Origin: Leucogyrophana mollusca
Taxonomy: Eukaryota > Basidiomycota > Agaricomycetes > Boletales
NCBI GenBank assembly: GCA_021014945.1
Contig: MU266434.1
Coordinates: 29,220 to 93,219, forward strand
Direction of reading: 5' to 3'
Length of the DNA stretch: 64,000 nt
Part shown: positions 31,401 to 64,000 of the stretch, in pieces
How the letters are laid out: each line of letters starts with the position of its first letter
Numbering within the stretch: the first letter of the stretch is position 1
Translations under genes and position numbers: made by a program
The notes under the pieces: generated by a model
Database searches by the model: none
What the model saw: the letters and a program-made list of their open reading frames with translations, nothing else
Told to the model about the DNA's origin: nothing

Positions 31401-31939
31401 GAGAAAGTGAACTCGTAGTTTGATGTTGAAGTTTTCTTTCTTGAGGCTGTCAATGTGCTGTGGCACGTCATGTTAGATTTTATGTGCCACCTAAGATTGC
31501 GCGAGTCCACCAGTACCTTCTCTTGATCGCGGAGGGTCAAAGTGACACCCTTTGAGCCTCCTGCGCTTGCTCTAGATCGCTTTGCACGAGTGGCGACTGG
31601 AGTTTCAGGCCCTTCACCCCATGGCTTTTCTCGTCCAGGCGTGTCTAAAAAATCACCTTCGACATGCTCATTCTCCTCGTCGTGGCTTGACAAACCGAGT
31701 CGCCTAAGAGAAGAAGGCTCGTCTAGCCTCTTCCGCAAGTAAGCTGAACCATGCTCAGGCGGCGACGGTGTCGACAAAGGAGCAGACGAAGGTGCTGTTG
31801 TCTGTGACGATACAGATGGTACGCGCAAGTTTTTGGCTGGTGTAGAGAAACCCGACACGAGCGAGCCGAGAGAAAGGTCTGGATGGGTTCCGGCGGACTG
31901 CGAGGACGTGTCTGGTCGGATGTTCAGCGCCGCAGACAT
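28472..31939 (-). CDS. CM1-motif microtubule-organising coiled-coil protein
   Basis: Seven exons (31517-31939, 30537-31457, 30191-30487, 29325-30131, 28983-29255, 28622-28929, 28472-28568) encode 1041 residues. After a disordered Ser/Pro-rich N-terminus, residues about 130-200 match the Cnn_1N/CM1 motif: VTLTLRDQEKHIDSLKKENF, KLRVHFLEERLAQL, then LKQNITLKIEVQQRG. In centrosomin, Pcp1 and Mto1 relatives CM1 binds and activates the gamma-tubulin complex. The rest is one of the longest Glu/Leu/Arg heptad coiled coils in the window, reaching nearly the C-terminus. No PACT motif could be recognised with confidence. The expected location is the spindle pole body or another microtubule-organising centre. 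Its promoter faces that of the AGC-like kinase at 32541. Confidence 0.85.
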
Positions 31940-38979: not shown

Positions 38980-41404
38980 TCACGAACCACTCTCCACAAA
39001 CGTCTGCCACACATAGCCATGCAAGTGTTCCGCGCCCGGAAGCTCCTGTATGAGGTGTCTAATCGTGTTCTCGGCGAGGCCAAAAAAGTGTGGGCCGGAA
39101 ACCGTACCGGAGGAGCGTATATTGCGGATTGAATGAGCCTGTTTAACGACGATGGCCCATGCGTCCTTCGGGGTGGTTGCAATCATCGGGCGATGAGGCA
39201 CGTCTGCTGCAACGATCTGAAATCTAGGACCAGTGGTACCGTCTAGAATCGAGCATTGGTACGTGACTTCTGCCGTCGGGTCCGTTATTGAAAGATATTT
39301 TCTGGACGAACCAGTCAGAAAAAGACGGAGTTGTGGGAGTATTTGAGCATACCGTTCCATCACGTATCCGATTGGAAAGATCCACCGATCGGTGTAGAAA
39401 CCCTGTCGCGTGCACACTGTACCGAGTTCGACGACGGTGAAGACGCTGACTTCCAGAGGGAGTAAAGGGCGCGAGTTATCGCGAGGGATCATTGGCACCT
39501 TAAGGGGCTTCGAGAGTAAGGTGGGCGGCTTCCAGTGTGGAGGGTTGGTGGGTCGTTGAATAGTGGGAGGGTGGAATGTCACGGCAGAGGTAAGTGGTGG
39601 CGATTGAGGGGTCGATGAGGTTGAAGATGCAGAGTGCAAACTGGAAGGGGACTTGTCGTACTGAGTTTCGCTTTCGCTTGCGACGTGCTGGATGGGATCA
39701 TCACATATTTCTTGGTCATCCAGAGAGGATATAGAGGACATCATTGATAGGAGGGATGAGCCTCGACTGTGGAAGGTTGATGATGAAGTTCCACTGAATG
39801 AAGATGAAGGCGACAACGGTGGTGTTTGTGATCGGGTCCGATGAGGTGGGGGTAGCATAATATCATCGTTTATGATCGACTCCTCTTCCTCGCCGACGCC
39901 AGACGCAGGTGAGGCAAGAGCCAACTGCAGCCTGACAAATTCTAGGATATCGCTGATCAACGGACGGCGTGCTGGCGTGGACCAGCATCGCTGGATGAAA
40001 CTCCACTGAAGATGGTCTATATCTAGGTTCCTGGGACGCCTAGGTGTGGACCCGCTTATTATCGCCACAAGAACCTGTGCGTTTTCTCGGAGGTTATGAT
40101 ACGGAATTGATCCTGAGAGGACCTGGAGAGTGAATTTAATTAGTATCATGATCCTAGACTCGTAAATGCAAGGCAGACCTGAAACATCACGCTGCTGAAA
40201 GAGTAAATATCGCTTTGAGTCGTAGGGAGATTTGGGGGAGTGTCTTCACTCTCGAGGATTTGATACAGCTCAGGCGCCGCCCATCGCACCGCCCCTCTAA
40301 TGGAGGAAGTAAAGTACGACGTCCCCTGAAATTCATATGTTACACTCGACAGGCCAAAGTCGGCAAGGCAAGCTCCGCCTTTGCGATCAATAAGGACATT
40401 AGACTGTTTGGCGGAAATGAGTACAGAACAAAGGTTGGCGCAACTGAAAACATACACCTGAGAGATCGCCATGGATTACTGAACATGAGTGGACTGTGGG
40501 GTTCGCAATGTAATGAAACGGTACTCTCTGAAAAGGCAAAGAAGATACAAACGATAAAAGAGACCGGCCGCGATGTCACTAAGCTGAGGGAAATAGCGTT
40601 GGTACAATGTTCGGAAGCAGTGTCAAGCTTACCAGCTTCCATCTATTATATTCCGTCAGATCCGTCCGCCGTTTCTCCAGAAAGTTGGTTAGTGTTCCAT
40701 TTTCTCGCCATGGACACACCATGGATGGGAAATGTCCGAAGTCTGAGGTTATGCCATAGAGAGGAAGCACGTTCGCATGATCTAATCTCGTCCACACTTG
40801 AAGCTCACGGCGGAGTCTCTGGATCTGTGTGAGGGGAAATAAAGCTGAAAAAAGGGGTGACAAACTAACCTTGCTTTTCTTGCTCAAGTTCCCCGAGCCA
40901 TCGTCAGAGGCGTGAGTCCTGATCGCTTTGACCGCGACCTAAATGGTCTGAGAGAAATGGCACCTGGTAGGAGATCTAGACGCACTTCGACGGATTTCGG
41001 ACTGTTATGCCACAGGCACCTCCAGATGTCACTAAACCCACCATAGGCGACTGGGTACTTCTCCAATCTTGTGATTTTCCCAGTGAGATCGGCTGGGGCA
41101 AACCGACTATCACATTGGTAATCAACATGAGCACAACTGGGAAAACCGAGGGATGACTTTACATGTTTTCCACGTTTACTTCAGACACTGTCCGATAGCG
41201 GCCATAATTGCTAGACTCGGAGTCAGCTGGTTTCCAAGGTTGCGCATCGTACACTTGGCCGTCTGTATGAGGGGAGTGAGGGCCCGGCCGATTGGACCTA
41301 AGATAACCGCTCGGCTGGCTAGTAAATCGTTCTTGGGTTGGTACTGTGCCGAGGTCCATGTCCAGGTGTGCGCGGCGCCCTGGGGGGACGAGAGGAGTCG
41401 TCAT
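38980..41404 (-). CDS. TKL-type kinase fused to FYRN-FYRC domains
   Basis: Eight exons (41163-41404, 40986-41106, 40870-40938, 40633-40824, 40553-40583, 40456-40493, 40179-40403, 38980-40122) encode 686 residues. Residues about 100-375 are a tyrosine-kinase-like domain: degenerate glycine loop YGGFSDIW, VAVK (Lys125), catalytic loop VIHGDLSGSNVLID (Asp228; Gly instead of the HRD Arg), LADFGLSS (Asp246), RWAAPE, and SDIYSFSSVMFQ. A Ser/Pro-rich linker (376-525) leads to FYRN at about 525-590 (VELGTVCTRQGFYTDRW, FPIGYVMERY) and FYRC at about 591-685 (YQCSILDGTTGPRFQI, SGPHFFGLAENTIRHLIQEL). FYRN/FYRC domains are known from chromatin proteins such as MLL/KMT2 and TBRG1. Kinase C-lobe, linker and both FYR domains lie in the single 1143-nt last exon, so the fusion is not a splicing artefact. 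The nearest kinase relative is the head-to-head neighbour at 42377. Confidence 0.82.
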
Positions 41405-42376: not shown

Positions 42377-44012
42377 ATGAATTTGCAGGTAAGTGTTTCG
42401 ATCAGTGCTATGTGGCCAGAATGTTCGCTCAAACTTTCATTCCTCTCCAGGTGGAGAGAATTCCCTTCTTTGACGAGAATGTTGCAATACAGAGTGTACC
42501 CACACGAGACAACCTGTTGGAAGACTCGCAAAAGCCTCTACCCACGCTTCCAATGTGAGATTATCGCTCGTGGATCTGAGATGCTATCTAATCTCGTAAA
42601 GAAACGACACTCCCCTACATCCCGCTGATCTAAGTGGCCAGATTCTTCGAGAAGGGAGATTTCCGGCTGCTCACGGAGGCTTCGGCGACATTTGGAGGTG
42701 TAAATGGTCTGTAGGCTCAGACCGCATCGATGTACGTTTGCCATTTGCATCGGCCGAGGCACCTCATAAAGATGACCTAGGTGGCAGTGAAAGTCATCAG
42801 AGCTCCCATTGTCGACGAGGTGGATAGGGCCAAGAAAAGCAAGGTCAGCTTACCCCTGGATGTCTAGTTCTCTCTTCATAGATCCACAGAGGCTCCGCCG
42901 CGAACTCAAAGTTTGGGCAAGGCTTCAGCATGAGTGCGTGCTGCCCCTGTTCGGCGTGACATCAGAGTTTGGGCCTTTCGCATCTATGGTTTGCCCTTGG
43001 AAAGAGAATGGTACACTGAATCAGTTCTTGGGCAAGTATCACGAGCATCTCACAATATTGGATCAATTCCATCTGGTAAGCACCTGCTAGGAGACGTCGC
43101 CGGCCCAATCTAAAGCTATTTCAGCTTAGTAATGTCGCGGCGGGCCTACGCTATCGTCCGTGACGTTTTCCTCTGGTGAGATATTGGGCTAATCTGTACA
43201 CAGTTCATTCATGCTCGGTCATACATGGAGACCTATCCGGTGTAAGTTTTACGACACCATAACGATGCCCATATCATCTCAACTTCGCTGATCGCAGTCT
43301 AATATACTCGTCGACGGCGACGGGAAAGCATGCCTTGCCGATTTTGGCCTATCGAGCGTAATGCTCGAATTCCAAGGCACTTCGTATTTCACGTCTTCCA
43401 TCAGGGGGGCAGTGCGATGGGCGGCTCCCGAGATTTATGAGGTACCTGTGGACGATAACGTCTCTCCGCATATCCCCACTGCACAAAGCGATATCTACTC
43501 TTTCGGTAGTGTCATGTTGCAGGTGCAGAATTCGTTGTCCCGGTGGCTCAAATCTCAGCTGAAGAATTCTTCTCTAGGTCATCTCTGGAGTAGTTCCTTA
43601 CCATTACCTCAAAAATGACGCCCAAGTACTCATCGCGATATCCAAAGGAATCACGCCAATGCGTCCGCTGAACCCAGAGATTGACGACGAGCACTGGAAC
43701 CTCATCCAGCAATGCTGGTCTACAACTAGGCATGGCGCACTTCGCCCGTCCATTCGCGCGATCGCGGATTTTTGTGCATTTGAACCCCATTTTATGTCAG
43801 GAGAGACTCTGGTACTGGGGTCTCAAGACGTGGATACGGACGATGATGCCCGTCGTCGTCGTCAATCTCGCCTGGACGCGTTGTTAGATCGCTCGACTCC
43901 AATTTCGTCCCCATCATCCTCAACGACCTCTCGCTCTTCGGTAGGTGCAGACATGCGCCGTCTTTCTGCAAGGTTCAAGCAAATGTTTCGCTTGACTATG
44001 AAATATTCATGA
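42377..44012 (+). CDS. TKL-type protein kinase
   Basis: Nine exons (42377-42388, 42451-42554, 42602-42731, 42781-42843, 42890-43075, 43125-43155, 43204-43241, 43298-43522, 43578-44012) encode 407 residues. Kinase features are GRFPAAHGGFGDIWRCKW, VAVKV (Lys86), VCPWKENGTLNQFL in the hinge region, VIHGDLSGSNIL (Asp185), ADFGLSSV, RWAAPEIY, and SDIYSFGSVMLQ. A Ser/Arg-rich C-terminal tail of about 70 residues follows. It lacks FYR domains but is the closest relative of the divergent kinase at 38980-41404. Three consecutive exons have exactly the same lengths in both genes (31, 38 and 225 nt). The first 12-nt exon is inferred from phase, and the true start may lie further upstream. The likely role is in signalling; the substrate is unknown. 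Confidence 0.82.
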
Positions 44013-44495
44013 CACCTTCAACTCCCACCTCAACCTGTGTGCCCATCGCCGCGGCGGCTGGCCCAATTCTCCTATATTAACCCTCCTCCCTTATTTTATT
44101 GTAATTCGATGGTAATGTAACACCACATGTACGAATAAACACTGCCATTCGAATTCATCAGAAATTGTCGGTCGGGGCAAGTTCGGCCGCGTAGGACCCT
44201 CATGGGAGCGACGTAGAGCGACGTCCGCAAAATCAAAAGTATAATGGCTACTGAGACATCTCGATGGCATTTTGGAGAAGTTCAGTCTTGAGTGCTTGAG
44301 GTTCTGCAATTGTTGGCGGATCTGAAGGGTGAGCAAGAAAAGTAAAATTCATTATTCCTCATCGCAGTATTATAAACAAGTTGAAAGTCGCAGGCTAAAT
44401 GGTAAAATTTGGAATAGATTGGGGTCAATACACCGACCAGCGGGACAGCGTATTCGACACTATAACTTAGATATCAAGTCCAAAGCAATGGGAGC
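44013..44495. other. Intergenic between convergent genes
   Basis: About 480 AT-rich bases forming the 3' flanks of the kinase and the ABC fusion gene. Nothing recognised. Confidence 0.45.
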
Positions 44496-47400
44496 TTACG
44501 AGCTATTCCTAGCTGCCGCCATCAACTTCGAGAACATGGTGTTGGGGCGAGACAGCAACTCCTTGGGAGAAGCGAACTCAATGGGTACGCCTTGCTCCAT
44601 GACCAATACTCGGTCACACTCCTCGAGAATACGGTCGCTGAGCCTGTGCATAACAGCAAGAATGGTGGCATCGGGGCAGCTCTTGCGCATAGCCTGCTGG
44701 ATGAAAACATCGGCACCGGCGTCGATGGAAGCGGTAGCCTCGTCCAGGAGGAGAATTTTGGGGTGACGAAGGATGGCGGCAGCGAGGCAAAGAAGCTGAC
44801 GTTGACCGACGGAGTAGTTGGAGCCGTTGTCCTCAACGATGGTGTCGAGTTTCAACTCCTGCGAGGAAACGAACTGCTTGAGGCCGACGAGCTCGAGTGC
44901 GTGCCACAAGGCGTTGTCATCGTGCTTTCCGTCGAAGTCAAGGGCAGACCTGATGGAGCCGGAGAAGATGAAGGGATCTGGAGCCAAAATGTGTCAACTA
45001 CATAGATCTTGGATGCGGGTATAACAGGTCTCACCCTGAGGAATCACTTGCATACCCTGACGGAGAGTAGAGACACCAAGGGACGTGATATCTGTTACAA
45101 TAAGATCAGACCTGAGGATAAACACCATCACGAGCAGAACACACCTCTACCATCGATCTCAACGGAGCCGCTGCCAGCCTCGATCATGCGGAGCAAAAGT
45201 GACAAAAGAGTCGACTTCCCGGATCCAGTTCGGCCGACAATGAACACAGTTTCGCCAGGGTTGAAGGTGAGGGTGACATCACGGAGAACGAGCTTGTCGG
45301 GACGAGAAGGGTAGGCAGCGTTGATGTCGCGCAGAACAATCTCACCACGCGAAGGCCATGCCTCCCTGGAGGGGTCTGAGCCAAGACGAGCAGCGGGCTC
45401 TTGGGGAAGTCCTTCGGTGTAGTTCATGAGACGTTCTACCGAGTTCATCTCGGCCTCCACGTTGGCAGCGCTCTTGAGGAGCAAGTTCATGATGTACGTC
45501 AGGGTGGAGGCGTAGGTAAGAGCCAAAGCGAATTGAGTGGAGTTACCAATGAGCGTGGTGTGGGCAAGCATGGCAAGAATAAAAACGATGAGCGACGAAA
45601 GAATTTCCATGCGAAGCGTGACCCAGATCTCAGCGTTCATGCGAAGGAATGTGGGCTTGTTGCTGGTGTCGAGCAAAGCACCAACAGCGTTGGCGAAGTC
45701 AAGTTCACGCTTGTACGCCATGATGGTTGGGATGCCGTCGAGGGTCTCGCTGATACGAGACTGGAGGGGGCCACGTTGGGTCGACTCGAGACGCTTCAAT
45801 TCACGGAGGGACTTGCGGTAGAAGCGCAGAACAAACCAGTAGACGATCATCATGGGGAACAAGAACGCTGAGCAGTGGTGAGGGCTCTGACTATCAAGCA
45901 CGACCGATGGACTTACCAAGCATGATAGGAGTGCTGTATCCAAGGATGATGGTGGTCGATAGCAGAGAACCAGTGCCGGCAACCAACTGGAAGAGCTGGG
46001 GCATCAGCCTTTGGTCGATAGCTTCGATGTCTTTGGAGAAGCGGTTCATGATACGACCAATGGGCTGGCCTTCGAACCACCACATGGGAGCACGAAGGAC
46101 ACCGAGGAGAGCCTTGGAGTGGAAGGTACGGCTAGCGCGGACGGTGCTCAACAGCACGCTGACGTTCAAGACGACTGATAAACACAACGTTAGCATGAAT
46201 GGGGTAAACGAGGCGGTTTAGGTGCATACTAAGGAAGAAGACAGATCCAAAGCCGATGCCGTTGTAAATCCCGATCCATCCTTGGGCTTTTTCGTGGAAG
46301 GTGTCTTCGGTCCACCAAGTCAACCACTGGCTGAGAATGACGACGCTGGCTTGCAGGAGAATCAATTGAGCGAGCAACATGAATGCCATTCTAGCACCGC
46401 CGGTAGCCTTGATGTATGCCCACCACGTAGCTGCGCCTACTGCACCGGTGTTACGTTGTTCCTCGACGATGAGCTGGTCGGGAGTCTCTTCCTTCTTGAC
46501 AGCTTGTTTCGCGGCGGCCATGCTCTTCCTCTTCTCGTCCTTCTTCTCATCGGAGCTCTGCGAGAACGATTGGAGGTCGCTGAGCAAGCGAGTGAGCTCT
46601 CCGTTCCTCCTGACGAGCTCGTTGAACGAGCCTTGCTCGACGATGGAACCCTCGGAAACGACGATGATGTGGTCGACCTGGTTGAGGTACTGGAGCTGGT
46701 GGGTAACGAGCACGCGGGTCTTTCCCCGAAGGCCTTTCTTGATGCAGTTGTTGAACACGTTGCGACCGACGCGGGCGTCAAGAGCAGCGAGGACGTCATC
46801 GAACAGGTAGATATCGGCATCCGAGTAGACAGCGCGAGCGAGCGCAAGACGAGCTTTCTGGCCACCACTGAGGTTGTTGCCCTTCTCACCCATCTGAGTT
46901 GCCATGCCGTGGGGGAATGTGTCGAGATCAGAGTCAAAAGAGGTGGTCTGGATAGCAGTCTGGAGGTGGTTCAAGTCAAGCGGACGGCCGAACAGGATGT
47001 TCTCCTGGATGGTGCTGGTTTGAACCCAGGGTTGCTGAGCACAGTAAGCGATTGAGCCAGCGCATTCGATCTCGCCGGAAACACGCAGCATCTCCCCGAT
47101 GATGGCAGACAGAAGGGAACTCTTGCCAGACCCGACACTGCCGACGATGGCGGTCAAGGATCCTTGCCTAATGTTGATGTTGACGTTGCGAAGGAAGGGA
47201 CGGGGACCCGAGATTTCCTCAATTTGTTCCTCAAGCCCACCTTTCTCAAGATCGATGCTCTCTACGTCGGTCTTCTCGTCGGCCTTCTTCTGCTGTTGAG
47301 CAGGAGCAGCAGCCTTGGCATCACTGTCGTTCGAGGGCCAGGAGAAAGCTCCGTTGCTGATGGTGATTGCGTCGCGGCAGATGGACATGACGGAGGAGAC

Positions 47401-50400
47401 AGAGGCCTCGGCACCAGATGACTTCTCGTCAGCGAGCAAAAATGCGTAAATGCGGCCCCAAGAAGTCATAGCGATGACGAAGGCACTTGCGACGCTATGT
47501 TAGTACAAATACGACCAGCAGATATTCGAGCATACCTGAGCAGCTGGGGGAGAGCAATCAAGGGGTCGACGAGCATACCGAAGAAAGACAACGCAGGGAA
47601 AACGCGAGCAGAGGGGACCTTGCCCATGTTCTCGTGACCGAAGAGCGAGAAGGCGGCGAGCGGCATAACCGTGTTTGTGATCTGGGCAGCCTTTAGCGCA
47701 AGGGGGGAACATACAGTGATCTGAACGCACCTGGCCAACAATGACGAAGCAGGCTACACCGGTGTTGAACTGCCTCAACCAACGAAGCTGCTCTGTGCGG
47801 ATTCCTTCCATCTTAGCCAGGAAGTGCTCCTCGCGGCCGTTAATCTTGACAACGCGGATGCCTGGGGCGCACAATCAGCACCAATGAATTCCAAATTATT
47901 AGTAAACCTACCATCGAGGACCTCACGAATAGTCTTCAGACGCCTGTCGCCAAGTCTCATGAACCACGGGGCAGCCTTGCGCATGAAAACGGGGACGACC
48001 ATGATCAGAAGGAAGAGCGAGAGGAAAAGGACACCGATGCCAGCCCACGCGGAGACGCCGAGGAGACGAGACAAGAAGATGGTGACTGCGGTAAGCTGGA
48101 GAGGAATGCTCCAAACCTGGTGAGTGACCTCAACTGCCTTAGAGACAGACTCGCAGTCGACGTTGACGAGGTTCATGACGTATCCTTTGCCGTACTTCTG
48201 GTTGCTCTCAGCCGAGAGCCTGAGAGCCTTCTTGTAGACGGCCGAGATCAAGACGGTCTTGACGTCCAAAGCCATACGCTTGACGAGCTGGTCGCAGGTG
48301 CGGCCACACAGAGTGAAGACCAATTTCAGCCCAAGAAGGATACTGCCCAATGCATATGTGCTGTCAACAAAGAGAGGGAAACCGCCTGTGTTCTCTTCGA
48401 TGGCCGTAATCCACTCAGACAGGTTGGGCTGAGTAGTGGGGCGCGTAGGGGCATTCGCGGCAACAATGATTTGCTGGAGCATCAAAGGAGCAAGAATCGC
48501 CGAGGCAACGGAAAAGAACCAGAGAAGGCCAGAGATCATCCTGAAAACGGCGCAAATGAGCAATCAAAACATTCAAGCGATTTCATTGATCACCGACCAG
48601 AGCTTTGAAGCAGACGAAAAGATGGACTTGAACAAGCTTGGGAGGGGCCTGCTTCGGTCAAAGAACCAGCCTCGGAGCTGTCTCCAAAAGGGATCCGACC
48701 ACCGTTCGACCATGATAGCTTCGTCATTGCGTCTCAAGGGGAGCAGGTCCTAATAGAATAGGAAACAATAGTAATTATATTTTAAGATGGGTACACTTCA
48801 ACCAGATAAGAAGATAACTACCGATTCCAACAACGGCCTCTTCGCTCCCAAGCTCATCAACGGCGTCATCCACGATACAAACAAAAACGACAACGGGCCG
48901 AAGTGAAGAGTGGGGTGGTTTGCGACATCGTTGGTAGACTCCGGCAGGACATTGATGACCGGAGGCTGCATGACGATCATGGAGCTGACGGGGCGGGGGC
49001 GGGACCCCTCGATGACATCCAGAGAGTCAACCTGAATCTTGGCAGGGAAGTCCGAATCGGAGCAGTCGTCAATAACGATCTTGGGGACGTCATCCTCAAC
49101 GATCGTGGCCTGGCTAGCAGGGCTGAAGGGAGTGGCAGGCTCAATAACAACCTCCTCAATCAACTCCTCCTCCACCTCATCTCCCAGGATCTCCACAGCG
49201 AGAGCCTCAGCGGTGACTTCCTCCTCGAAGAGGTGGGTCATCTCCTCCTCGTACTCGTACTCAGACTGGAGCCAGAAGTAAAGGCGCACGATAGTGATGG
49301 AGTTAAGGCCGGAGTAGAGAAGAGGCATATCGGCGGGAATGGGCTCAGAGGATTTGGTGAGCTTGGTGATCTCGGCAGCGATAGCGGCGGCAAGGTCGCC
49401 AACTCTGGAAGACGCAGACATGGTCATGGGTGCCTCAGCCGAGAGACCGGGGGTAAGAAGGTCAGAGGAGTCTGCGAGCTTCTGCAACTTCGCGAGGTCG
49501 ATCTTGTACGAAGCGTTGAAAGGCATCTCGTCAAGGCAACGAACAGAGTGGATAACCATGGCAAGGTCATCGCCGAGAGAAGCGCGAAGGCAGTCACGAG
49601 CCTGCTTGAGGATGAACATGGCATCAGCGGTTTCCGTGCTGGCGAAGAGAATGATCTTGTCGTCGGCATTGGACTTCACGAGCTTGAAGCCAGTGACGTT
49701 GACAGTCTTGTCAGCGAACGCGGGAGCCAGAGCGCGCTCAACGTAGTCCAGGTCAACGAAAAGTCCGTTCACCTTAACGTTGCGGGAGCTGCGACCCTTG
49801 ATCACGATGGAACCATCGGCTTGCATGCAACCAATATCATCCGTGTAGAGGAGCATATCAGCGCCAGACCACTGGCGGAACATGTGCTCTGTCGCCGCAG
49901 GGTTGTCGAGGTACTTGGTGGCACTTTGGCTAGTGACGAAGCCAACAATGCCAGTGGCGCCCTCCTCGTGTTGAGAGATGACGCTGAAGGACTCGTCAAG
50001 CAAAACGAGATCGGTGCAGCCTTGAGTGGCACCGAAGCTGATCGTGGATGGCATGCGATCGGTGGGGCGCACGAACATTTGTGAGATGCCGGCGAAGCCG
50101 ACCTCGGAGCACTGTGAGAACATAGATGAGAATGCTGTTATAACCGATACCCAAGTGATACTTACAGCGTAGTTGCACGCAATGGTGCAGGATGGGAAGG
50201 TGGAGCGTGCAAGCTCGAGGTCGCGGATGCTGAGAGACTCGCCACCAATAACCATCCAGTACACACGGTTGAAGCCACGGGGGAGCTGAGAGCCTCCAGC
50301 ACGCATCTGAGCGAAGTCGGCAAAAGCGCGGAAGACACTGGGTGTGAAGTGGACACGCAGGAGTTGCGAGTTGCGAGTCGACTCCAGCTCCTCGCACAAA

Positions 50401-51200
50401 GCCGCACATTGGTCAGCAACTGAAGAAGAGGCATCGAGGTAGAGAGTGGTCTGGTTGAACATGAAACGACGGATCTCGAACAAAGGGCGTAAGAATGTCT
50501 GTATGAATTCGGTCAGATCATTGTCAAGCGCTCAAGATGAAGACGTGCCGTTCCACCGCGAAGCCACTGGCCATCCATAGGCCTCAAGAGCGTTGAAGAC
50601 TCTTCGCACAACACTGCCAAGCTCCGGTTCATAGGGTACACAATGCTCTTCGGCACGCCAGTGCTGCCGGAAGTAGGGGTGATGCTGCAGATCACGGGGA
50701 TTGCCTCAACAGTCTCGCTGGGTGAAGGTGGAGCCACGAAGGGGGGAGCGTCCTGGGAGGAAACGAGAGAGGACGTTGCAACGGCAGTGACACCGGTGAT
50801 AGCCGGGGGCGTAGATGCGCCGTGCAAGATAAGGCGCACTGAAGCGCGAGAAAGGACGACCGCGAGCACTTCGGGGGTCCATTTCGAGGAGAGGAAGACG
50901 ACAGTACGGCCGGACAACCAGATGGCATGCGAGGCGGCAACGTAGTCGATTTCAAGGCTTTATAACAGTCAAGTGAGCAGAGGGATATAGATCAGCGACG
51001 TTGACAACGCACCCCATGTAGAGGCCAACAGGGTTCCTGGAACCATCAAGGTCGTGGATTTGGTCGGCAATCTGCCTGACGCGGGCCCAGAGGGCGGCGT
51101 ATGACCATTGAGAGCCTGCGCTTCGAACAGCAGGGCGGAAAGGATGGGACTTCGCAACTTGAAGCAAAGCCTCGGTGGGAGTAATCATCGATCCGGACAT
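44496..51200 (-). CDS. Adenylation-carrier-ABC-C transporter fusion protein
   Basis: Thirteen exons (51013-51200, 50549-50957, 50166-50498, 48822-50111, 48598-48749, 47912-48540, 47731-47861, 47536-47681, 46230-47494, 45917-46174, 45151-45867, 45035-45091, 44496-44977) keep phase to encode 2018 residues. Residues 1-540 are an NRPS-like adenylation domain: TSGSTGVPKS (A3), NYACSEVGF (A5), YTDDIG (A7, TGD changed), GRSSRNVKVNG (A8), and SYKIDL with the A10 Lys. About 545-620 is a carrier domain with SGLNSITIV (Ser581 likely phosphopantetheinylated). After an acidic linker, an ABC-C/MRP exporter begins near 710 (FGPLSFLFVSWMTPLMSLG). NBD1 has GSVGSGKSS, LSGGQKARLALARA and the MRP-type non-Glu site IYLFDD; NBD2 has GRTGSGKST, YSVGQRQL and ILLLDEA. 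The module replaces the usual TMD0. The donor of exon 2 must be a GC site (50548); otherwise all junctions are GT-AG. Confidence 0.85.
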
Positions 51201-54200
51201 TCTGCTAGAGTGTCAAAAAAGGAGTGTTTGAATGAAAATACAAGTCCCAAAAGCTTGGACCAAAGCCAAGTATTAGAATACGAAGAAGAATGAAAAAAAT
51301 GAGAAGAAACGAAAGCTACAACGGGGACCAGCCCGGGATAAAAGGCAAAAGAAAGAGAAGAAGCGTGAGGGAGGTCAACCAAGGGCCTGTGGAGCTAGAG
51401 GGAAGAGATGGTTTATATATGGCTCAAGAGCACATGTTTGTCTATAGGCGCTCACCAGGCACTGCTTAGCCGACAGTTACAGCCTCGCTGCCGTGTGTAG
51501 ATCAAATTGTTTAGTCCAGGACACACTCCGAAACAACCCCATCACTCAGTTCACTCACTGTGACAAGGCCAAGGCGCCATTTCGTAGGTAGTCGCGACCA
51601 GGTGATCCGGTAGGCAACAGGCTGTGGGTACAGCGTTTGCGGGATATCGCTGCAAATTCCTAGAAATCGCCAGTTATTAGTGGATCCGCACTTTCCGAGA
51701 CAAGAAGCCCCATCCAATCTCCCAATAGATGAATCCCTCGTCAATCAACCGCAATGACGCTGGGCTCTGGGGGAGTTCAGAAGCCGGTCGCAGTGGTCCC
51801 GATCCACGGTCATCGCCATCAAAGTGATACGAACGGGGACGATTCCTCCCATCATCTTCGGATCGCGGGGCTGTTTCCTTTCCAAGGGGCCAACGTAACT
51901 ATCCACACAGCCTCGAGCAACTCTGCTTCCCAACTTTCTCCCAACTGTAAAATAGTGGTGATGCCGCCTCCTCTTCAACTCACAGTCCAAATTATCATTC
52001 TAGCGACCGGGTAACTCTCCCTCCTTACGTTGCCCATTGGACTATTGTACTCTTGTTGTACTCAACGATCAACGAATGAGGCACAGGCGCCGATAACACG
52101 AATGCCTCCCGCGCCCCTAATCGGAAGCAGACGAGCACGTACCTTTGAGCTCGGAACATTCGGATTGGCCAGACCGAGAATGGCGATACGCAACCGGTAA
52201 CAGCGCAGAGCACAACAGCCATTCAGCTTGCTGGTAATTTGGGATCGTATCGATGGGCCACAAGAGCGCCATCATCACTATATTTCGGCGACCGCTACTA
52301 ACCAGACGATGAACGCGCAGATAAGGATTTAAAATGTTGTGGCTCAGTTGACCAATATAACTCACGTTAAACGGAGCCTAGAGCAGGAAAGTGGAGCGTG
52401 CACGAAATCACGAAGTGTTGTTCACATCACTTGACCTGACGTATGTGCGCATTGCCGGCCCAGTCATAGCTGGCAAGCTGATAACAGATTCTCCTATGTT
52501 CACGAGGTTGGCAGTTCAACTGTCCTGCGCCTTGGTACTTGACAGGCACCATATGTCCAGTGGCCATTGGCGGCAGAGCAATCAATGCTACACCCTACCG
52601 GGGATACGGAGAGCGCCTTTCCCACCACGTCACGTAAGGTTGTCCTCGAGGCATCAAAGATCCGAGAGCAACTTGACAGAGAATCCTTGTCGACGACGTT
52701 TCAATGGGTACGCATGAAGTCAAGAATACATCGCTTACGAAGACACAGGACTGTGCGTTCGCTCTGACAAGAGACCTATGAATACGTGGTCCCGCACACG
52801 AGATGAGACTGGTCAATGACGGGGTGCAACTTGTGATCCAGACTACGGGGAGGATCACCCCGATACTTCCTGGTCCTTGGCGAACATATCGTGAAACTGC
52901 CCTCCAATGATTGTGAGTTTTTGTGTTAGCTATCTTTCATGGACCTCCTCACAGCTCCAGGTGTTTCATGAGTCCATGTGGCTGGCACTGTGATGGGGAT
53001 GTTCAACTGCTATTTCGATTGTGTCTGGATTTAGGCGATCGGAGAAACTCACGGGTCGCAGCGCAGAAACTCCACAGTAATAGGACCACATATTGAGCAC
53101 ACCAAAAGTGCGAGAACCTAGTCAGCACAAAAGTCATTCTGTACTCATGGCAATAAATTCAACCTTATTGTAGAAGTGAGGATTGTCTTGGATTTTGTGT
53201 TCGGAGTTGCACATACTCTGTAAGACACATTCAGAGTGCACCCGTCTCCTATCGGACGTCGGGGAAAAGGGACGACGCCTAAACAGTGTGATTGAAAAAT
53301 TCAGCATTTATGACCAGAGTCCTGCAAGTCAACATGCCACCAATTACGTGCCAGTACAAAGAGATCTGACGCGTCCTCAACACAGCCCGCTCAGTAAGCG
53401 CCCCAGACCCCAAATTCCGTGTTGTATCGTCATGGAGCTCTACGATTGTGCCAAGCCGATATGCCGTCACTCAGTGATGAGCATTATGCGCGTCGCCAAG
53501 GACAGTGTGACTTGCGACTGCGAATAGCAGATAGCCTGATACCTGAAGTGATGATAGTGGTCATTTTCAACCGGAGGATAAGTCCCAGGTCAGTTGTGGC
53601 TGAAAACAAGGGTGCAAATTGACAGGATGTGGCTGAGCGCTGAGCCCCGAAGCTGAGTAGCGAGTGGACTAGCTAGTACGGCCAACTTCACCGGGTGCGA
53701 CGCGAACTATATCACCTACATATACCATGCATAGTAACCTTCAGGAAGATCACTGACGCAGTTCTCTTTAATCAGGCTGCTATCAGACCGCACACCAACT
53801 TATCCATGGATCTCACCGAGATCGTGTGCAGGGCGTGTCGACTCGGTCAACATCACATCCTACGATTGAGCGACGGGATCAGTTTCATTTCGCCCTCCAA
53901 GCTGATCCCGATGGTCTTTAAGGTCTATGAATAGGCATCATTCTTTGTGGCCCATGATGCGTTGTGTCGGATCGCGCATCACCGTTGGGGTTAAGACCCC
54001 CATCAGCGATTTAGGGACAGGTGGGTATTACATTATAAGATTTTGCCAGGGATTACAAGATCCTTGTCATTTTCGAAAAATGCACCCGTTCACAGTTTGT
54101 AAAACCATGTAATGGATTATCCACCTGTCCTCGGTTCAGTGATGCCCCTGGGTCCGTACTAAAGTGTGCAGACATTAAACTTGCGCGGGGCGAGCTCAGG

Positions 54201-56631: not shown

Positions 56632-57598
56632 TCATGAAGGGAGCTCATCCCGGGAGGGCACGAGGCCAGGAGCAGCGAACAGTATCACAGCCACTAGCTC
56701 TGTGAGGGCGGAAAGCGGATACCACAGGTTCTCATCATTCTGCTTCGCCGAGTTGTTGGATGTCGCGGTGAAGAACGCCTCGCGAGCAAGGAGGAGCAGA
56801 GAAATGAGGCAGAGGATGTGGATTCCATAGGTAGATCCGAAAGCTCCGTTCGAGACTTTGTAGGAGCCGTCTGTTACAAAAACAAAGGTTGAGTGGCGTG
56901 GCAAGGGTTGAAGTGAGCGATACTTACACATCGATCCAGAGCGGACAAGGAGGATCGTCTGGAACGCCACTAGGATGCAGAGAACGAGGAAGATGTAGAT
57001 AGCCACTTTGCGCAGGGTGGTGCCTGTGCTCCGAGAGCTTGCTGAAGATGACGTGGCTTCAATGGCACCAGTGATTCCGACGGCAACCGCAGCCATGAGC
57101 GCAATGCGGAATAATTGACGTCTCCGCGTTATGCGGGAGATGGGACCATCAGGAAGAGGAGCGTCGGACAGAAGTCCACTGTGGATGGTTCGTAAAACTG
57201 CCTCAACCAAAAGTCTTCGAAGCACCTACCGGTCAAGGACGAGGGTGTAGGCCGAATAGAGCAGACCGAAGAAACCGACATTGTAGAGAATTTCGAACGT
57301 TATGAAGAGTGTGAGGTTCTTCCCATCAGAGGTTACGCCAGCTAACAACGCTCTCAGTACAAATGCAGCAATCCGCACTGTGCATTCGATGAGTATTTCG
57401 TTGAACAATCGAGCGACTCTTTCACATACCTGCACAAAAGAGAGAGAGAACGATGAAAACATAGGTGGGACGGGCGATTGCCTGCTTGATATAGAACAAC
57501 AAGAGAGGGAAGTAAATGATGGCAAAGATCACGGCGCCAGCGACGGAATCGATGCCGTTTTCCTTTGCGAAGTTGTAGTCGGGGGGGAAGGCGGACAT
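56632..57598 (-). CDS. DUF7702-like membrane protein
   Basis: Four exons (57430-57598, 57230-57377, 56928-57178, 56632-56870) encode 268 residues with about seven hydrophobic helices. Recognisable pieces are FAIIYFPLLLFYIKQAI in helix 1, FITFEILYNVGFFGLLYSAY in helix 3, then FQTILLVRSGSMYGSYKVS, ILCLISLLLLAREAFFTAT and the C-terminal NLWYPLSALTELVAVILFA followed by APGLVPSRDELP. This matches the fungal membrane family DUF7702, whose function is unknown. The gene lies divergent to the PKS with 1.1 kb between them. Members often sit in secondary-metabolite or stress loci, but that is only a weak contextual hint. Confidence 0.75.
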
Positions 57599-58724: not shown

Positions 58725-61700
58725 ATGTCTGCTGAAGTACCAGTCGCCATCGTCGGTATCGGAGGGAGATTCCCTGGAGGGTCTGATACTCCGGACTTGT
58801 TTTATCAATTTTTGCGCAACAAGGTGAGTATTGAGTCTATTGTAGCCCGTTATCTGTCTGACAACCCCCAGGGAGATGGGATGGTTGAGCCGCCCCCGGA
58901 ACGTTGGATTCACGCCGAGTGGAATGGTGGGCCGTAATCCAATGATTCATATGGATAAAAGTCTAAATCGAAATCTCGCTCATAGGCGGAGCCAACGAGC
59001 CAGGCAAGTATCACTGTGCCAAGGGCGGCTTCATTTCAGGCATCGATCAATTCGACCCCCTCGAGTTTGGCATTTCCGCCAAGGAAGCTCAGCATCTCGA
59101 CCCTGCCATTCGTCTGACGCTTGAAGCTGCTCACGATGTACGAGCGCTTGACACACGTATATCACTCTTCTGTGCTAACCGCAACTCGACAGGCCTTGCA
59201 AGACTCTGGTATTGACTACCGGGGATCAAAAACTGGAGTATTCTTCGGTAATTTGCTAACGACTACAGATGAACTTGATGACGATCGTTATGAAATGAAC
59301 AACTACAATGGTGTCGGAAAATGTGTTTCTATTCGCGCCAACCGTATTTCCTTCACGTTTGATCTACGTGGACCCTCCCTGACGGTCGACACTGGTGAGT
59401 TGGAGTCTCTTTGAAAAGGGCAGGTTGCTCAAGCTAGTTCTCCCTTAGCGTGCTCCGCTTCCGCGACTGCAATGCATCTTGCACTTTGCGCGATCAAGCT
59501 TGGCGACTGCGACCAAGCGTTGGTTGTTGGTATGGATATCACTAACCTCCCGGGTACGAGGTCATTACTGACTCTCATCAGGTGCCAACACGATGATTAA
59601 TCCCGAGCACACCGTCTCTTTCTCTAAACTCGGCGTCTTGTCTCCCACCGGCTCCTCAAAATCCTTTGATGCTTCCGCCGATGGTTACGCGAGGTAAGAT
59701 CTCACTTGGACGTGTTGCACCCGAGACTGATAAATCCACCAATACAGAGCTGAAGCTGCGGCTGCCGTCCTTATCAAGCGCCTTGATCACGTCAAGCGTG
59801 ATGGTGACTCTGCGTACGCTGTTCTCACGGGTTCGGCTATCAATGCGAACGGAAAGGGTAAGAGTTTGACGATGCCGGAGGGTGCGATGCAGGCGGAGAC
59901 GATCAAAGGCGCCTATGCTACCGCTAAGCGCGATCCTGCTGAGGCGTTCTTCGTTGAGCTTCACGCCACTGGTACGAAGGTCGGCGATCCCATCGAGACT
60001 AACGGCGCCGGAAAGGTGTTTTCGAAAGGACGCTCAGATGACAAATTACTTCGGTAGGCCGCAGCTACATTCATGACGGCGGGCGTGACCTAACGCAATG
60101 GACGCGCGCAGAGTCGGGTCAATCAAGGCCAACATCGGACACGCGGAAGGATGTTCATTCCTTGCCAGTTTGGTCAAAGTCTCGCTCATGCTGCACCACA
60201 AAGAGATTATCCCGAACATCCGTTTTAACTCGCCTAACCCTAAGATCGACTTTGCGGGTGGCAAGATGAAGGTGCAAACCGAGGTATGCAAGGTCATCTG
60301 TGCACTTGCGGTCAAGTCTAATCTGGGATGTTCGCAGATCGAAAAGATCACTCCTGCGATGGCTGCCAAGGACGGCAAGTGGGTCACTTCGATCTCCTCG
60401 TACGGTGTCGGAGGTTCAAACGCCCACGTCGTCCTGGAATCATTCGATTCTGTACACGACCTTGAGAAGCCTACGGCCACAATCACCACTGTCCCAAGTC
60501 CCCTCTACTTGTTCTCTATCGGAACGCTCACAGAGACCTCTCTCGCTCGCTGGAAGGACACGCTCACCACGACCTTCGCCGACGTTGCAGACGACAGGGC
60601 CTTGCGTTCTATCGCACGTGATCTTGGTCGCCAGACGCGTGCATACCCTGCACGCAGCTTTGCTGTAGCAGCCTCTCTTGGCCCCGACACCAAATTCTCG
60701 AAGCCCGTCCTCACAAACAGCAACTCTAGTCCCAAACTCTGCCTCGTCTTCTCTGGGCAAGGCCCTCAGCACGTTTTCATGGGTCGCCAGCTTTCGGAAA
60801 GCTATCCCGCGTTCTTGGATGCCATCAAGGAGAACGACAGGATCCTCGTGGAGAAGTATGGCCAAGAGTCGATGCTTGAGCGCACTGGGCTTTTCATCCC
60901 AGGTGTGGAATGCAAACTCGCCTCGAGTGGGGTGTGGCCTGTTCGCGAAGTCGTCCTTTCTCTCGTCTTCGTCCAAGTTGCACTCGTCGACCTCATCCGC
61001 AGCCTCGGTATCCGGTATGACGTAGTCGTCGGTCACAGGTAAGCATCCTGATATTTTCGGGTCTGCACATTGTAAGCTCAAACGTCTATATCAGTATCGG
61101 TGAAATAGCGATGGGCTACGCTTCTGGCCACTACGACAGGGAGATGGCCGTTGGCATCGCTGTGGCTCGTGCAGCTGCTATGACACAGGCAGAGGGCAAT
61201 GGTGCCATGGTTGCTCTCGGCGTTGGTGTCCAGAAGGCAAAGACAATGATCCGCAAGGTTCTTTCTAAGGCCAAGGTCACAAGTGGTCTCTGGATCGCTG
61301 GTCTCAACTCCCCCTCTGCAGTCACGGTCGCCGGAACGCACGAGCTTATTGACGCCATGGTCGAGCTCGCAGCTGACCCCGATGCGAAAGTCTTCGCTGC
61401 CAAGCTTCGTGTTGGGTGTGCTTTCCATACACCTTTGATGGAACCGCAGGAGGAGCTCTTCAAGACACGTATCAACCAGACTCCTCTTGCCAGGGGAACG
61501 AACACGCCTATCGCGCGGGTCATGTCCACCACTGACGGCAAGTGGTTGGATCGGGACCTCGACATCAACTACTGCTGGGACAACATCCGTCGCCCAGTTC
61601 TCTTCGGTACTGCGATGAACAAAATCCTCAATGATTACGGCGCAGAAGGACTCCTCTTCCTCGAGATCGCTCCTCACCCGGTCTTGAAGGCTTACATCGA

Positions 61701-64000
61701 GCAGTGCGGTGGAGAACCTGTTTCTCTTATTCGCCGCCCCAACCCGAAAGTTCCCGCACAGAACACTGGCGAACACTACCAGTTCCTGGAGGGTATCGGG
61801 AACATGCTCGCCGCTGGCTTCAAACACGTTGACTTTGACAGACTTTGCGCGTCTCCAGATGGGCGGACCGACTTCTACAAACCTAAGCTCCCTGACTATC
61901 CCTACAACAAATCGTACTGCTGGGCCGAGTCCGGTGGAGAGCGCTCCCGGCGTCTTCGGGAGAAGCCTCGCCCCATTGCCACCCCTCACTTCCGTATTAA
62001 CGTTGACAGCCACCCTGACCTGACTGGACACATCGTGTTTGATGCAGTACTCTTCCCCGCTTCTGGGTAAGTGTTAGGTGGCGTCATTTTGGCCTGGTGC
62101 TGAACAAAATGTATCTAGATACGTGGAGAGTATCCTAGAGAACGGCGCCATGGTCGCATCTAATATCGCCATCCATAAACCGCTTGTCCTTAACGCCAGT
62201 GGAACATTCCCTGGCCACGCTGGTTGCGTGATCGAAGGCGACAAGTGGCAATTCAGAGCTTCCACGAACAATGATTTCAATAATGGCGAGATCATCCTTG
62301 ACTCTGTGTACGCGAGTGGATCGTTCTCCCGTGTCAACCCTGCCTACGATGAAAACGCGCCTCGCATGTTCGACGTTGAGTCTAAGCTTTCGCGATCACG
62401 GGGTTCAGTCACCGGCGACGAGTTTTACGACGCGATTCCCGGTGCTTATCGCTATCAAGATCATTTCAAGAACTACCTCAAGACTGTCCACGAGATCGAC
62501 GACGAGAACAGCTGGGGTGGCAAAGCCTACCTCACGCGACTTGAGGTGCCCGAGGGAACTCCAGACGTCTTCGGCAACGGATATGTCATTCACCCCGGTA
62601 TTCTCGATAGCATCACACAGTGCGGTTTGGCAATGTTCATCAACATGGACACTAAACTGTTCGACTTCAACGGCGTCTTTCTCCCTGTGAAGATCGATGC
62701 TCTTCGTCGGTGGGATAGTCGCGATGCGCCGGATCTCGATTCCGAGATCAAGAAAGGCATCTGGACCTACTTCACTGGTCGCACATGGGCACCGGGTGGT
62801 CCATTCAAATCGGACTACGTGATTGCCAACTCCGAAGGACGCGTCCTTTTCACGATTGAAGGTTTCGAGATCGCACGCGCACCAGACGCAGAGCCCGTTC
62901 CTATCACGGACAGCAGCTTGGAGGAACGATTGACCACTGTGTGGCAGGCCAAGTCGTTCCCCTCAAAACCTTCCAGCCTGACCGCGGACGCTACTCTAAC
63001 ATCGGTCTTCAACGCACTCGCTCGTTCTGCGGGAGCCGCTGGACGCAAAGTCGTTAGAGTCGTGGACCTGTCCCCCACTGCAGACATCGCCAAAGGCCTT
63101 GACTCGTCGCTGATGTCACTTCTCACCGACGCGCACGTCGTGACTGAGTATTTCTGTGCTGCTTCCACTCCCGAGGACGCCGACGCAAAGACTTCAACTT
63201 TGACATACACCCATGCCAGATCTTTGGCGGTCGAATCCTGGAAGCTGACGGACGATGTAGAGGATACGATGCTCGTGAGGTAGGCACGTCCAGAGCAGTT
63301 TCGTAACACACTCCTGACACCTTCTCTAGCTTCGACATCGCTCTCTACTCGGCTGATCTCTCAAATGCGCCTGTCAACGTAGCGGATATTACGAACTTCC
63401 TGGTGTCTTCCGGCGTACTGGTGCTGAGCGTATCAGGTGTGTTGGTCGACCCTGCGCGACATACTTCGAACTCACCATCCGCCCCAAAGATTCGAAATCC
63501 CACTCAGACAACGATGAAACAGAACAACTAACTATTGATGCATTGTTGGAGAAGCTTCGCGCAATTCCCGCTTCGGATGTCCAAATTTCAAGGCAAGCGG
63601 ATGGTTCGTCCATCGTAGTCGTTCGCATCACCCAGCCTATCCTCTCTGTCCCTGCTGGGCCATTCAAGAGCGTTGTGATTTATCCGTTCGAGCACGGCAG
63701 AGAGGGAGAGCTTATCGAGATTGCAAAGAACATCTCTGCTGATGCGGAGTTCTGGATCACTGGCAACGACGACGCGGCGGGCATTGGGGCCTTGGGTATC
63801 GCATCTTGCATCATTGCCGAATCGCCCGAGTACACAGTACGATCCGTCCTATTCGAGGATCACTCTTTGAGTGAGGCAGCCCGCGAGAAGATTGTCCATG
63901 ACCTGCGGCGCAACTCCCTGCTTCTTGAACAACACATGAAGATTTCGCAGAATGGTGACGTGTACGTTCGCAGGCTCGTACATGGCTCGGTCGAGGTCAA
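58725..64000 (+). CDS. Reducing-type polyketide synthase, 5' part
   Basis: Twelve exons to the window end (58725-58823, 58872-58926, 58986-59137, 59193-59394, 59449-59529, 59582-59693, 59748-60053, 60112-61038, 61095-62066, 62119-63279, 63330-63436, 63490 onward) encode about 1561 residues; the gene runs off the window. KS starts at MSAEVPVAIVGIGGRFPGG, with active-site DTACSAS (Cys171), ELHATGTKVGDP and KANIGHAEG, so Cys-His-His are all present. AT starts near residue 548 (LVFSGQGPQ) with VGHSIGE at about 645. DH has TGHIVFDAVLFPASGY (the HxxxGxxxxP Gly is Asp) near 957, and the second-site Asp in HPGILDSITQ near 1130. The following region shows no SAM-binding motif and looks like a pseudo-methyltransferase. 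From about 1400 it resembles the structural/ER-side region of basidiomycete reducing PKSs (DDAAGIGALGIASCIIAESP). KR, ER and ACP would lie beyond the window. Confidence 0.88.

What the first reader, a model, noticed from the sequence alone, without database searches (positions are those of the whole stretch)
44496..51200. Adenylation-carrier module fused to a full ABC-C exporter
A complete NRPS-like adenylation domain and a carrier with a SGLNSITIV Ser are joined to a two-NBD ABC-C transporter in one phase-consistent gene. Carrier Ser581, the linker and the first transporter segment lie in the same 1290-nt exon (48822-50111), so splicing cannot separate them. The module sits where ABC-C proteins usually have TMD0. 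This suggests the activated substrate is tethered at the cytosolic mouth of its own exporter, or that carrier loading gates transport. I know of no characterised fungal protein with this order.
Basis: partly seen in the sequence, partly recalled or inferred. Interest (0 to 1): 0.93.

Follow-up and report, generated by a model that had tools for sequence, protein, structure and literature searches.

The report
Mushroom enzyme-exporter fusion, already described
A bolete-relative fungus carries one gene that joins an acid-activating enzyme and its carrier arm to a membrane pump; the pairing is real and was reported before, but its carrier arm and a conserved stop signal inside one intron may be new.

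Summary
On the minus strand, 51200..44496 encodes one intact 13-exon protein of 2017 aa: adenylation domain, one carrier (Ser581), low-confidence linker, then a full two-NBD ABC-C exporter without TMD0. One apparent frame break is a GC-AG intron that homologues support. The fusion recurs in Boletales (Astraeus, Chiua, two unnamed sources) and in a chytrid (Irineochytrium). One relative lies on a 6368-nt contig too short for exons plus introns like ours, so it reads as a spliced full-length transcript.

It is not new: PMC4692070 (2015), citing a 2013 paper, describes an ABC-C transporter with an N-terminal AMP-binding domain in Boletales and reports the idea of coupled biosynthesis and transport.

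Additions here: a structurally supported carrier; Leu where amino-acid-activating domains have the A4 Asp, so the substrate may not be an alpha-amino acid; chytrid fusions; relatives with two or three carriers; and intron 4 (48821-48750), whose weak donor leads into a conserved 7-codon tail, followed by a stop in 19 of 20 sequences. One short contig with introns 1-3 spliced keeps this tail, suggesting a transporter-less product. A PKS gene starts 7.5 kb away. Substrate, loading and coupling are inferred.

The parts
51013..51200 (-). exon 1, start codon at 51200; A domain N-terminal part
   Evidence: P0001-P0003 align from residue 1
50549..50957 (-). exon 2, A domain with core A3 TSGSTGVPK (residues 158-166)
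50499..50548 (-). intron 2, 50 nt, GC-AG borders; resolves the apparent frame break
50166..50498 (-). exon 3, A domain; FLRPLFEI with Leu202 where NRPS A4 has Asp
48822..50111 (-). exon 4: A domain end (A5 from its Cys, A7, A8, A10 Lys513), carrier, linker, transporter lasso/elbow
49176..49415 (-). carrier (PP-binding-like) domain, about residues 543-622, four-helix fold
   Evidence: Pfam below cut-off
49299..49301 (-). Ser581 codon (TCC), predicted phosphopantetheine site at the start of helix II
48822..48917 (-). start of the transporter core (PLSFLFVSWMTPL...KRPLLES), residues 709-740
48750..48821 (-). intron 4, 72 nt, the only donor of 12 without G at +5 (GTAGTT), 72% A+T
   Evidence: with the intron-11 donor as corrected
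48798..48821 (-). read-through of intron 4: VVIFLSG and stop TGA, conserved in orthologues
48598..48749 (-). exon 5, between elbow and TMD1 helices
47912..48540 (-). exon 6, TMD1
47731..47861 (-). exon 7, TMD1
47536..47681 (-). exon 8, TMD1
46230..47485 (-). exon 9, NBD1 (Walker A at 1208, LSGGQ at 1298, Walker B YLFDD) and start of TMD2
45917..46174 (-). exon 10, TMD2
45145..45867 (-). exon 11, TMD2 and NBD2 Walker A (1809)
45035..45091 (-). exon 12
44496..44977 (-). exon 13, NBD2 signature SVGQR, catalytic Glu in LLLDEATAS, H-loop; stop TAA

Best explanation
This is a member of the known Boletales family of ABC-C exporters with an N-terminal acid-activating module; no second copy was found in the genome. 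Shown by sequence: one intact reading frame A-T-ABC-C with the catalytic motifs of each part. Inferred: the A domain makes an acyl-adenylate from a carboxylic acid (probably not an alpha-amino acid), a phosphopantetheinyl transferase arms Ser581, the acid is held there as a thioester at the cytosolic face of the pump, a partner enzyme (for instance a PKS or NRPS) uses or releases it, and the ABC-C half exports the finished product. The linker of about 85 residues would let the carrier reach both the A domain and the mouth of the pump. Also inferred, with less weight: retention of intron 4 yields a soluble A-T protein, so the cell can make the activating enzyme with or without the exporter.
Against: No biochemistry. 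Carrier below the Pfam cut-off in this protein. Chiua's fused protein has Pro instead of the carrier Ser and lacks the first part of the A domain. Two pump relatives (P0142, P0144) keep the carrier Ser but lack the A10 Lys, P0121 has Glu there, and P0122 and P0123 have lost the motif, so cis activation is not kept everywhere. The PKS neighbour runs off the contig, and PMC4692070 detected no such clusters next to the gene in mycorrhizal Boletales. Many public annotations list the two halves as separate proteins.
Confidence: 0.5

Rival explanations
1. Bifunctional by address only: the A-T part makes a diffusible acyl product and the pump exports it; fusion only keeps both proteins together at the membrane, with no hand-over from the carrier to the pump.
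For: Database proteins with A and two or three carriers and no pump exist, though some may be split gene models; P0142 and P0144 keep a pump with a defective A domain.
Against: Fusion with the carrier next to the pump occurs in fungi as far apart as Boletales and a chytrid.
Confidence: 0.28
2. Two-product gene in which the transporter-less A-T protein is the main catalytic form, made by retention of, or early poly(A) in, intron 4, and the full fusion is a minor or conditional form.
For: Tail pattern kept in 20 of 20 and stop right after it in 19 of 20 sequences at 51-90% exon identity; tail peptides median 0.86 identical against 0.43 for intron-2 read-through peptides at 65-90% exon identity; weak donor in the window; P0049 runs through introns 1-3 spliced and ends in this tail on a 2422-nt contig. 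The two-carrier proteins P0044 and P0046 behave likewise on 2886- and 2978-nt contigs, but with a different tail.
Against: Intron DNA seen only in the window; contigs may stop there because assemblers break at splice forks; only one single-carrier contig of this kind was seen; the tail may be kept for splicing control rather than as peptide; P0121 lacks the stop; lowest tail pair identity is 0.29.
Confidence: 0.13
3. Regulatory sensor: the A-T module no longer makes a product, and loading of the carrier gates the pump, as SUR-type or CFTR ABC-C proteins gate rather than simply export.
For: Ser kept where the A10 Lys is lost (P0142, P0144).
Against: A3, A7, A8 and A10 are conserved in most rows that cover them; NBD2 is intact.
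Confidence: 0.05
4. Two neighbouring genes mistaken for one.
For: Many public models split the locus; 15 of the 27 pump-half hits compared (P0126-P0152) start at the same Met880.
Against: Met880 lies after the first hydrophobic segment of the core (residues 790-817), so such a pump would be headless; the elbow is in the carrier exon and intron 4 joins it in phase; P0002 reads as a spliced full-length contig; P0003, P0005 and P0006 stand in public records as one protein.
Confidence: 0.04

Closest known systems
Boletales ABC-C transporter with N-terminal AMP-binding domain (PMC4692070, 2015, passages seen; earlier Kovalchuk, Lee, Asiegbu, Mycologia 2013, known to me only through that citation)
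   Same: ABC-C exporter with an AMP-binding domain at its N-terminus, in Boletales; same proposal of coupling biosynthesis to transport
   Different: The word 'carrier' has 0 occurrences in the main text; intron-4 tail and chytrid members are not in the passages seen; NRPS neighbours reported in Coniophora and Serpula, here a PKS
MRP/ABCC exporters, incl. those without TMD0 (MRP4, MRP5; their lack of TMD0 is recalled)
   Same: TMD1-NBD1-TMD2-NBD2; the 60 solved matches shown (of 578) are all ABCC members incl. ABCC2, MRP1, YCF1, MRP4, MRP5, SUR, CFTR
   Different: A-T module in the place of TMD0; the group of Boletales and chytrid pumps stands apart from the ten other ABCC proteins used
ChNPS12-type A domain followed by a ferric-reductase transmembrane domain (PMC2823734, section 21 read)
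   Same: Fungal A domain joined to a membrane domain
   Different: Redox-type membrane domain, not a pump
epsilon-poly-lysine synthetase / PosA (PMC10522769, passages seen)
   Same: A and carrier domains joined to a terminal membrane domain
   Different: Membrane domain serves polymerisation of amino acids; no ABC core

Membership tests
ABC-C (MRP/ABCC) exporter | two ABC_membrane and two ABC_tran domains in one chain | tested here: met
   P0001 and P0005 likewise
ABC-C (MRP/ABCC) exporter | best sequence matches are ABCC members; asymmetric NBDs | tested here: met
   (60 shown of 578); motifs
ABC-C (MRP/ABCC) exporter | active export | not testable with these tools
   needs a transport assay
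[quoted passage not shown]
   94% identity to a Hygrophoropsis aurantiaca pump over 1138 columns; description
AMP-binding ABC-C group of Boletales (PMC4692070) | falls in the paper's own ABC-C tree group | not tested
   the paper's sequences were not fetched; own tree includes Coniophora, Paxillus, Pisolithus and Boletus pumps
NRPS-like adenylation domain | A3, A7, A8, A10 motifs with catalytic Lys | tested here: met
   Lys513; fold of the stand-in P0047
Amino-acid-activating NRPS A domain | Asp of core A4 (F-D) that binds the alpha-amino group (role recalled) | tested here: not met
   Leu202, same in the 10 relatives shown; the 24 NRPS domains compared were picked by a pattern holding F-[DS]
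Phosphopantetheine carrier | four-helix fold with Ser at the N-end of helix II | tested here: met
Phosphopantetheine carrier | Pfam PP-binding above cut-off | tested here: not met
   17.1 bits against 20.8; relatives P0045 and P0057 are above it
Phosphopantetheine carrier | phosphopantetheine actually attached | not testable with these tools
   mass spectrometry needed

The most novel reading that the evidence does not exclude
One gene makes two machines by a splicing choice: with intron 4 removed, an activating enzyme and carrier welded to their own exporter; with intron 4 kept, a soluble A-T enzyme ending in a conserved VV[IM]FxSG tail. The carrier then presents its thioester-bound acid directly to the pump, so that an ABC-C exporter draws its cargo, or its gating signal, from a covalent arm instead of from solution.
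Probability: 0.18. Interest if true: 0.85.

Novelty: new member of a known kind. Interest (0 to 1): 0.52.

Why it matters
If the carrier hands its load to the pump, this would be a covalent link between making and exporting a metabolite in one polypeptide, testable with one point mutation (Ser581). If intron 4 is a switch, it would show mushrooms choosing between a soluble and a membrane-tethered form of a biosynthetic enzyme by splicing; light-dependent splicing of a mushroom biosynthesis gene is already reported (PMC9603100, abstract and outline seen). The gene is also a marker for an unknown bolete metabolite, perhaps linked to the neighbouring PKS.

Tried and rejected
Frameshift or pseudogene in exon 2: rejected; the break is a 50-nt GC-AG intron, as homologues show. 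Nine relatives (P0058, P0061-P0067, P0072) read through an intron at the same site, which confirms its place.

Second copy in the same genome: none found for the A-T part or for the elbow-TMD1 part beyond weak matches (C32, C435; C75); these searches score the best candidates only.

Structure prediction of the A-T part used the relative P0047, not the window: mean pLDDT 62.4, residues 151-224 under 50, so the substrate pocket was not read from it. The exon-4 model has mean 66.5, with 89-95 in the carrier. Their alignments had 27 rows (A2) and 20 rows (A1), picked from the hits, plus the window exon in A1.

RNA families: no match in 44000-52000. More sequence on the PKS side: the contig ends with the window.

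Literature: the listings of searches show no paper on this fusion by title or abstract start; of the papers listed there I opened three (PMC2823734, PMC10522769, PMC9603100). The paper that describes the fusion came from searches; one search gave it again with two others that I did not open. PMC2848647 was only searched for terms: AMP-binding 0 occurrences. The 2013 Mycologia paper was seen only as a citation. One search (intron retention) was seen as a listing.

A result that does not fit neatly: PMC4692070 lists Ceriporiopsis subvermispora among fungi with the AMP-binding ABC-C, while the Gelatoporia subvermispora protein P0057 (I recall these as synonyms) is a 1013-aa protein with three carriers and no pump. 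P0057 may be a split model, or a second gene exists; so 'free' multi-carrier proteins are not proven free.

Tail count: of the 82 hits I took the 19 single-carrier proteins that reach the splice junction, plus the window; shorter hits and two- or three-carrier proteins were left out. Two-carrier relatives end in other tails (for example VLSMLAV, ILMLTV). The control uses another intron and another fungal group, so it is a guide, not a matched test.

Protein searches were capped lists: searches scored only the 7992 and 7996 candidates sharing most words, and one search lists 120 of 140; the distribution is a lower bound.

Trees are quick ones without bootstrap; long branches meet at the outgroups; in both, the order of the chytrid and basidiomycete branches is unresolved, so horizontal transfer is not excluded.

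Full report
WHAT IS THERE. On the minus strand of the window one gene runs from ATG at 51200 to TAA ending at 44496. The final model has 13 exons, 6054 nt of coding sequence and 2017 residues in a span of 6705 nt. Eleven of its twelve introns have GT donors and one, intron 2, has GC. Without that intron the A domain seems to break frame; enumeration of splice pairs offers the GC-AG pair 50548-50499, and P0001, P0002, P0003, P0005 and P0006 all read QWLRGGT-TFLRPLF across the same place. Two other borders, the acceptor of intron 8 and the donor of intron 11, were set by homology.

PARTS. The N-terminal 525 residues form an adenylation domain: Pfam AMP-binding, and, for a model of the 73% identical relative P0047, best structure fits to NRPS A domains and DltA; sequence matches to solved structures agree. 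Core A3 TSGSTGVPK, A7 YTDDIG, A8 GRSSRNVKVNG and the A10 Lys513 are present. Next comes a carrier, about 543-622, whose predicted structure (window exon 4) is the four-helix carrier fold with Ser581 at the start of helix II and which fits BlmI ACP and the carrier seen with Sfp. Then a linker of about 85 residues predicted with very low confidence, and from residue 709 an ABC-C core with both NBDs. No 19-residue window before the core passes the hydrophobicity threshold used, so TMD0 is absent.

CONSERVATION. A search with residues 200-720 of the long protein gave 43 hits, of which the first six are fusions: two from unnamed sources at 72 and 69% identity, Astraeus odoratus, Chiua virens, and two from the chytrid Irineochytrium annulatum. 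In the ABC tree the Boletales pumps, two carrier-ABC proteins (P0142, P0144) and the chytrid pumps form one group apart from the ten other ABCC proteins used; the order of its three main branches is unresolved. In the A-domain tree the chytrid fusions, the three-carrier group and the Boletales group are three branches of unresolved order. The nearest named pump is Hygrophoropsis aurantiaca at 94%, so the host is probably a Boletales species close to it. No second copy was found in the genome.

IS IT ONE TRANSCRIPT. P0002 has 2004 residues on a contig of 6368 nt. Coding sequence alone takes 6015 nt; with introns like ours (651 nt) the gene would need about 6670 nt. So that contig is spliced RNA, or the lineage has lost most introns. 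The gene calls on many contigs clearly do not splice: P0106, P0109, P0111 and P0112, for example, begin at residue 322, the first Met of exon 4, and nine relatives read straight through intron 2. Public models of Boletales often split the locus: A-T proteins and pumps sit on contigs of the same length in Pisolithus marmoratus, P. microcarpus and Boletus coccyginus, and 15 of the 27 pump-half hits compared begin at Met880, after the first hydrophobic segment of the core. I read these as annotation splits.

INTRON 4. The split A-T models end at the same spot. Of 20 single-carrier sequences that reach the junction (19 database proteins and the window), all carry a seven-residue read-through of one pattern and 19 stop right after it: VV[IM]FxSG or close variants (VLMFASN, VVMFASN, VVIFIFG). 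Their exons are 51-90% identical. The tail peptides have median identity 0.86 (0.80 for the five residues away from the donor; lowest pair 0.29); nine read-through peptides of intron 2 in another group have 0.43 although their exons are 65-90% identical. In the window the donor GTAGTT is the only one of twelve without G at +5, once the intron-11 donor is corrected to GTGTGT, and the intron is the longest and richest in A+T (72%). The second codon of the tail is Val in 19 of 20 and Leu in one; either implies T at +5 in all 20 (inference from the code). P0049 has introns 1-3 removed but keeps this tail, on a contig of 2422 nt; two-carrier proteins P0044 and P0046 end at the equivalent place with other tails on contigs of 2886 and 2978 nt. 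A regulated, transporter-less product fits well; splicing control without a protein product and contig breaks at a splice fork are not excluded.

SUBSTRATE. In an alignment with 24 NRPS domains (chosen by a pattern that includes F-[DS]), the A4 Asp position is Leu202, as in the 10 relatives shown. Established NRPS knowledge (recalled) ties that Asp to the alpha-amino group, so I expect another kind of carboxylic acid. A PKS gene with ketosynthase, acyltransferase and dehydratase pieces, hence probably reducing, begins near 58725 on the other strand and runs off the contig; it is a possible source of acid. ACPS-type domains match at three places in the genome, one of which may belong to a fatty acid synthase.

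RESULTS AGAINST. The carrier is below the Pfam cut-off here. Chiua's fused protein lacks the carrier Ser and the first part of the A domain. P0142 and P0144 keep the Ser but not the A10 Lys; P0121 has Glu; P0122 and P0123 have lost the motif. So activation in cis is not kept in every relative. PMC4692070 names Ceriporiopsis subvermispora as a bearer of the fusion, while P0057 of (by my recall) the same species shows no pump, so split models blur which relatives are truly free.

WHAT IS KNOWN. PMC4692070 (passages of the Boletales section) reports an ABC-C transporter with an N-terminal AMP-binding domain in all Boletales it analysed except Suillus luteus, earlier in Serpula, Coniophora and Ceriporiopsis, states the hypothesis of tight coupling of biosynthesis and transport, and notes uncharacterised NRPS clusters beside it in two species. 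The finding is therefore a new member of a known kind. Related ideas are A domains joined to a ferric-reductase membrane domain (PMC2823734, section 21) and poly-amino-acid synthetases (PMC10522769, passages). The carrier, the chytrid fusions, the multi-carrier relatives and the intron-4 tail did not appear in the passages I saw; the 2013 paper was not read.

VERDICT. The fusion is real (about 0.95). Loading of Ser581 is likely (about 0.75). Direct coupling of loading to export is open. The bold reading, a splicing switch plus covalent hand-over to the pump, has probability about 0.18.

Noticed in passing
window 58725-64000 (+): PKS gene (KS, AT, PS-DH pieces) running off the contig end, divergent from the fusion gene; possible biosynthetic neighbour
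   Followed up: partly
window 56632-57528 (-): Likely multi-exon membrane protein with a sub-threshold DUF7702 match (26 against 27 bits) between the fusion gene and the PKS
   Followed up: no
window 43292-43615 (+): Protein kinase piece; the open frame next to it ends at 44012, about 480 nt from the stop of the fusion gene, convergent
   Followed up: no
window 38983-40245 (-): FYRN-FYRC domain protein
   Followed up: no
window 30480-31472 (-): Centrosomin N-terminal motif protein
   Followed up: no
P0057 and P0083: Proteins with one A domain and three near-identical carriers (Gelatoporia: three PP-binding stretches; Thelephora: three GLNSIT motifs read in the sequence) and no pump in the model
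   Followed up: partly
P0044, P0045, P0046: Two-carrier Boletales-type proteins end in a stretch like the TMD1 elbow (for example FSFLFSSWITPL), as if they are, or once were, fused to a pump
   Followed up: no
P0142, P0144: Carrier-ABC proteins with the carrier Ser but without the A10 Lys; their N-terminus may be cut
   Followed up: no
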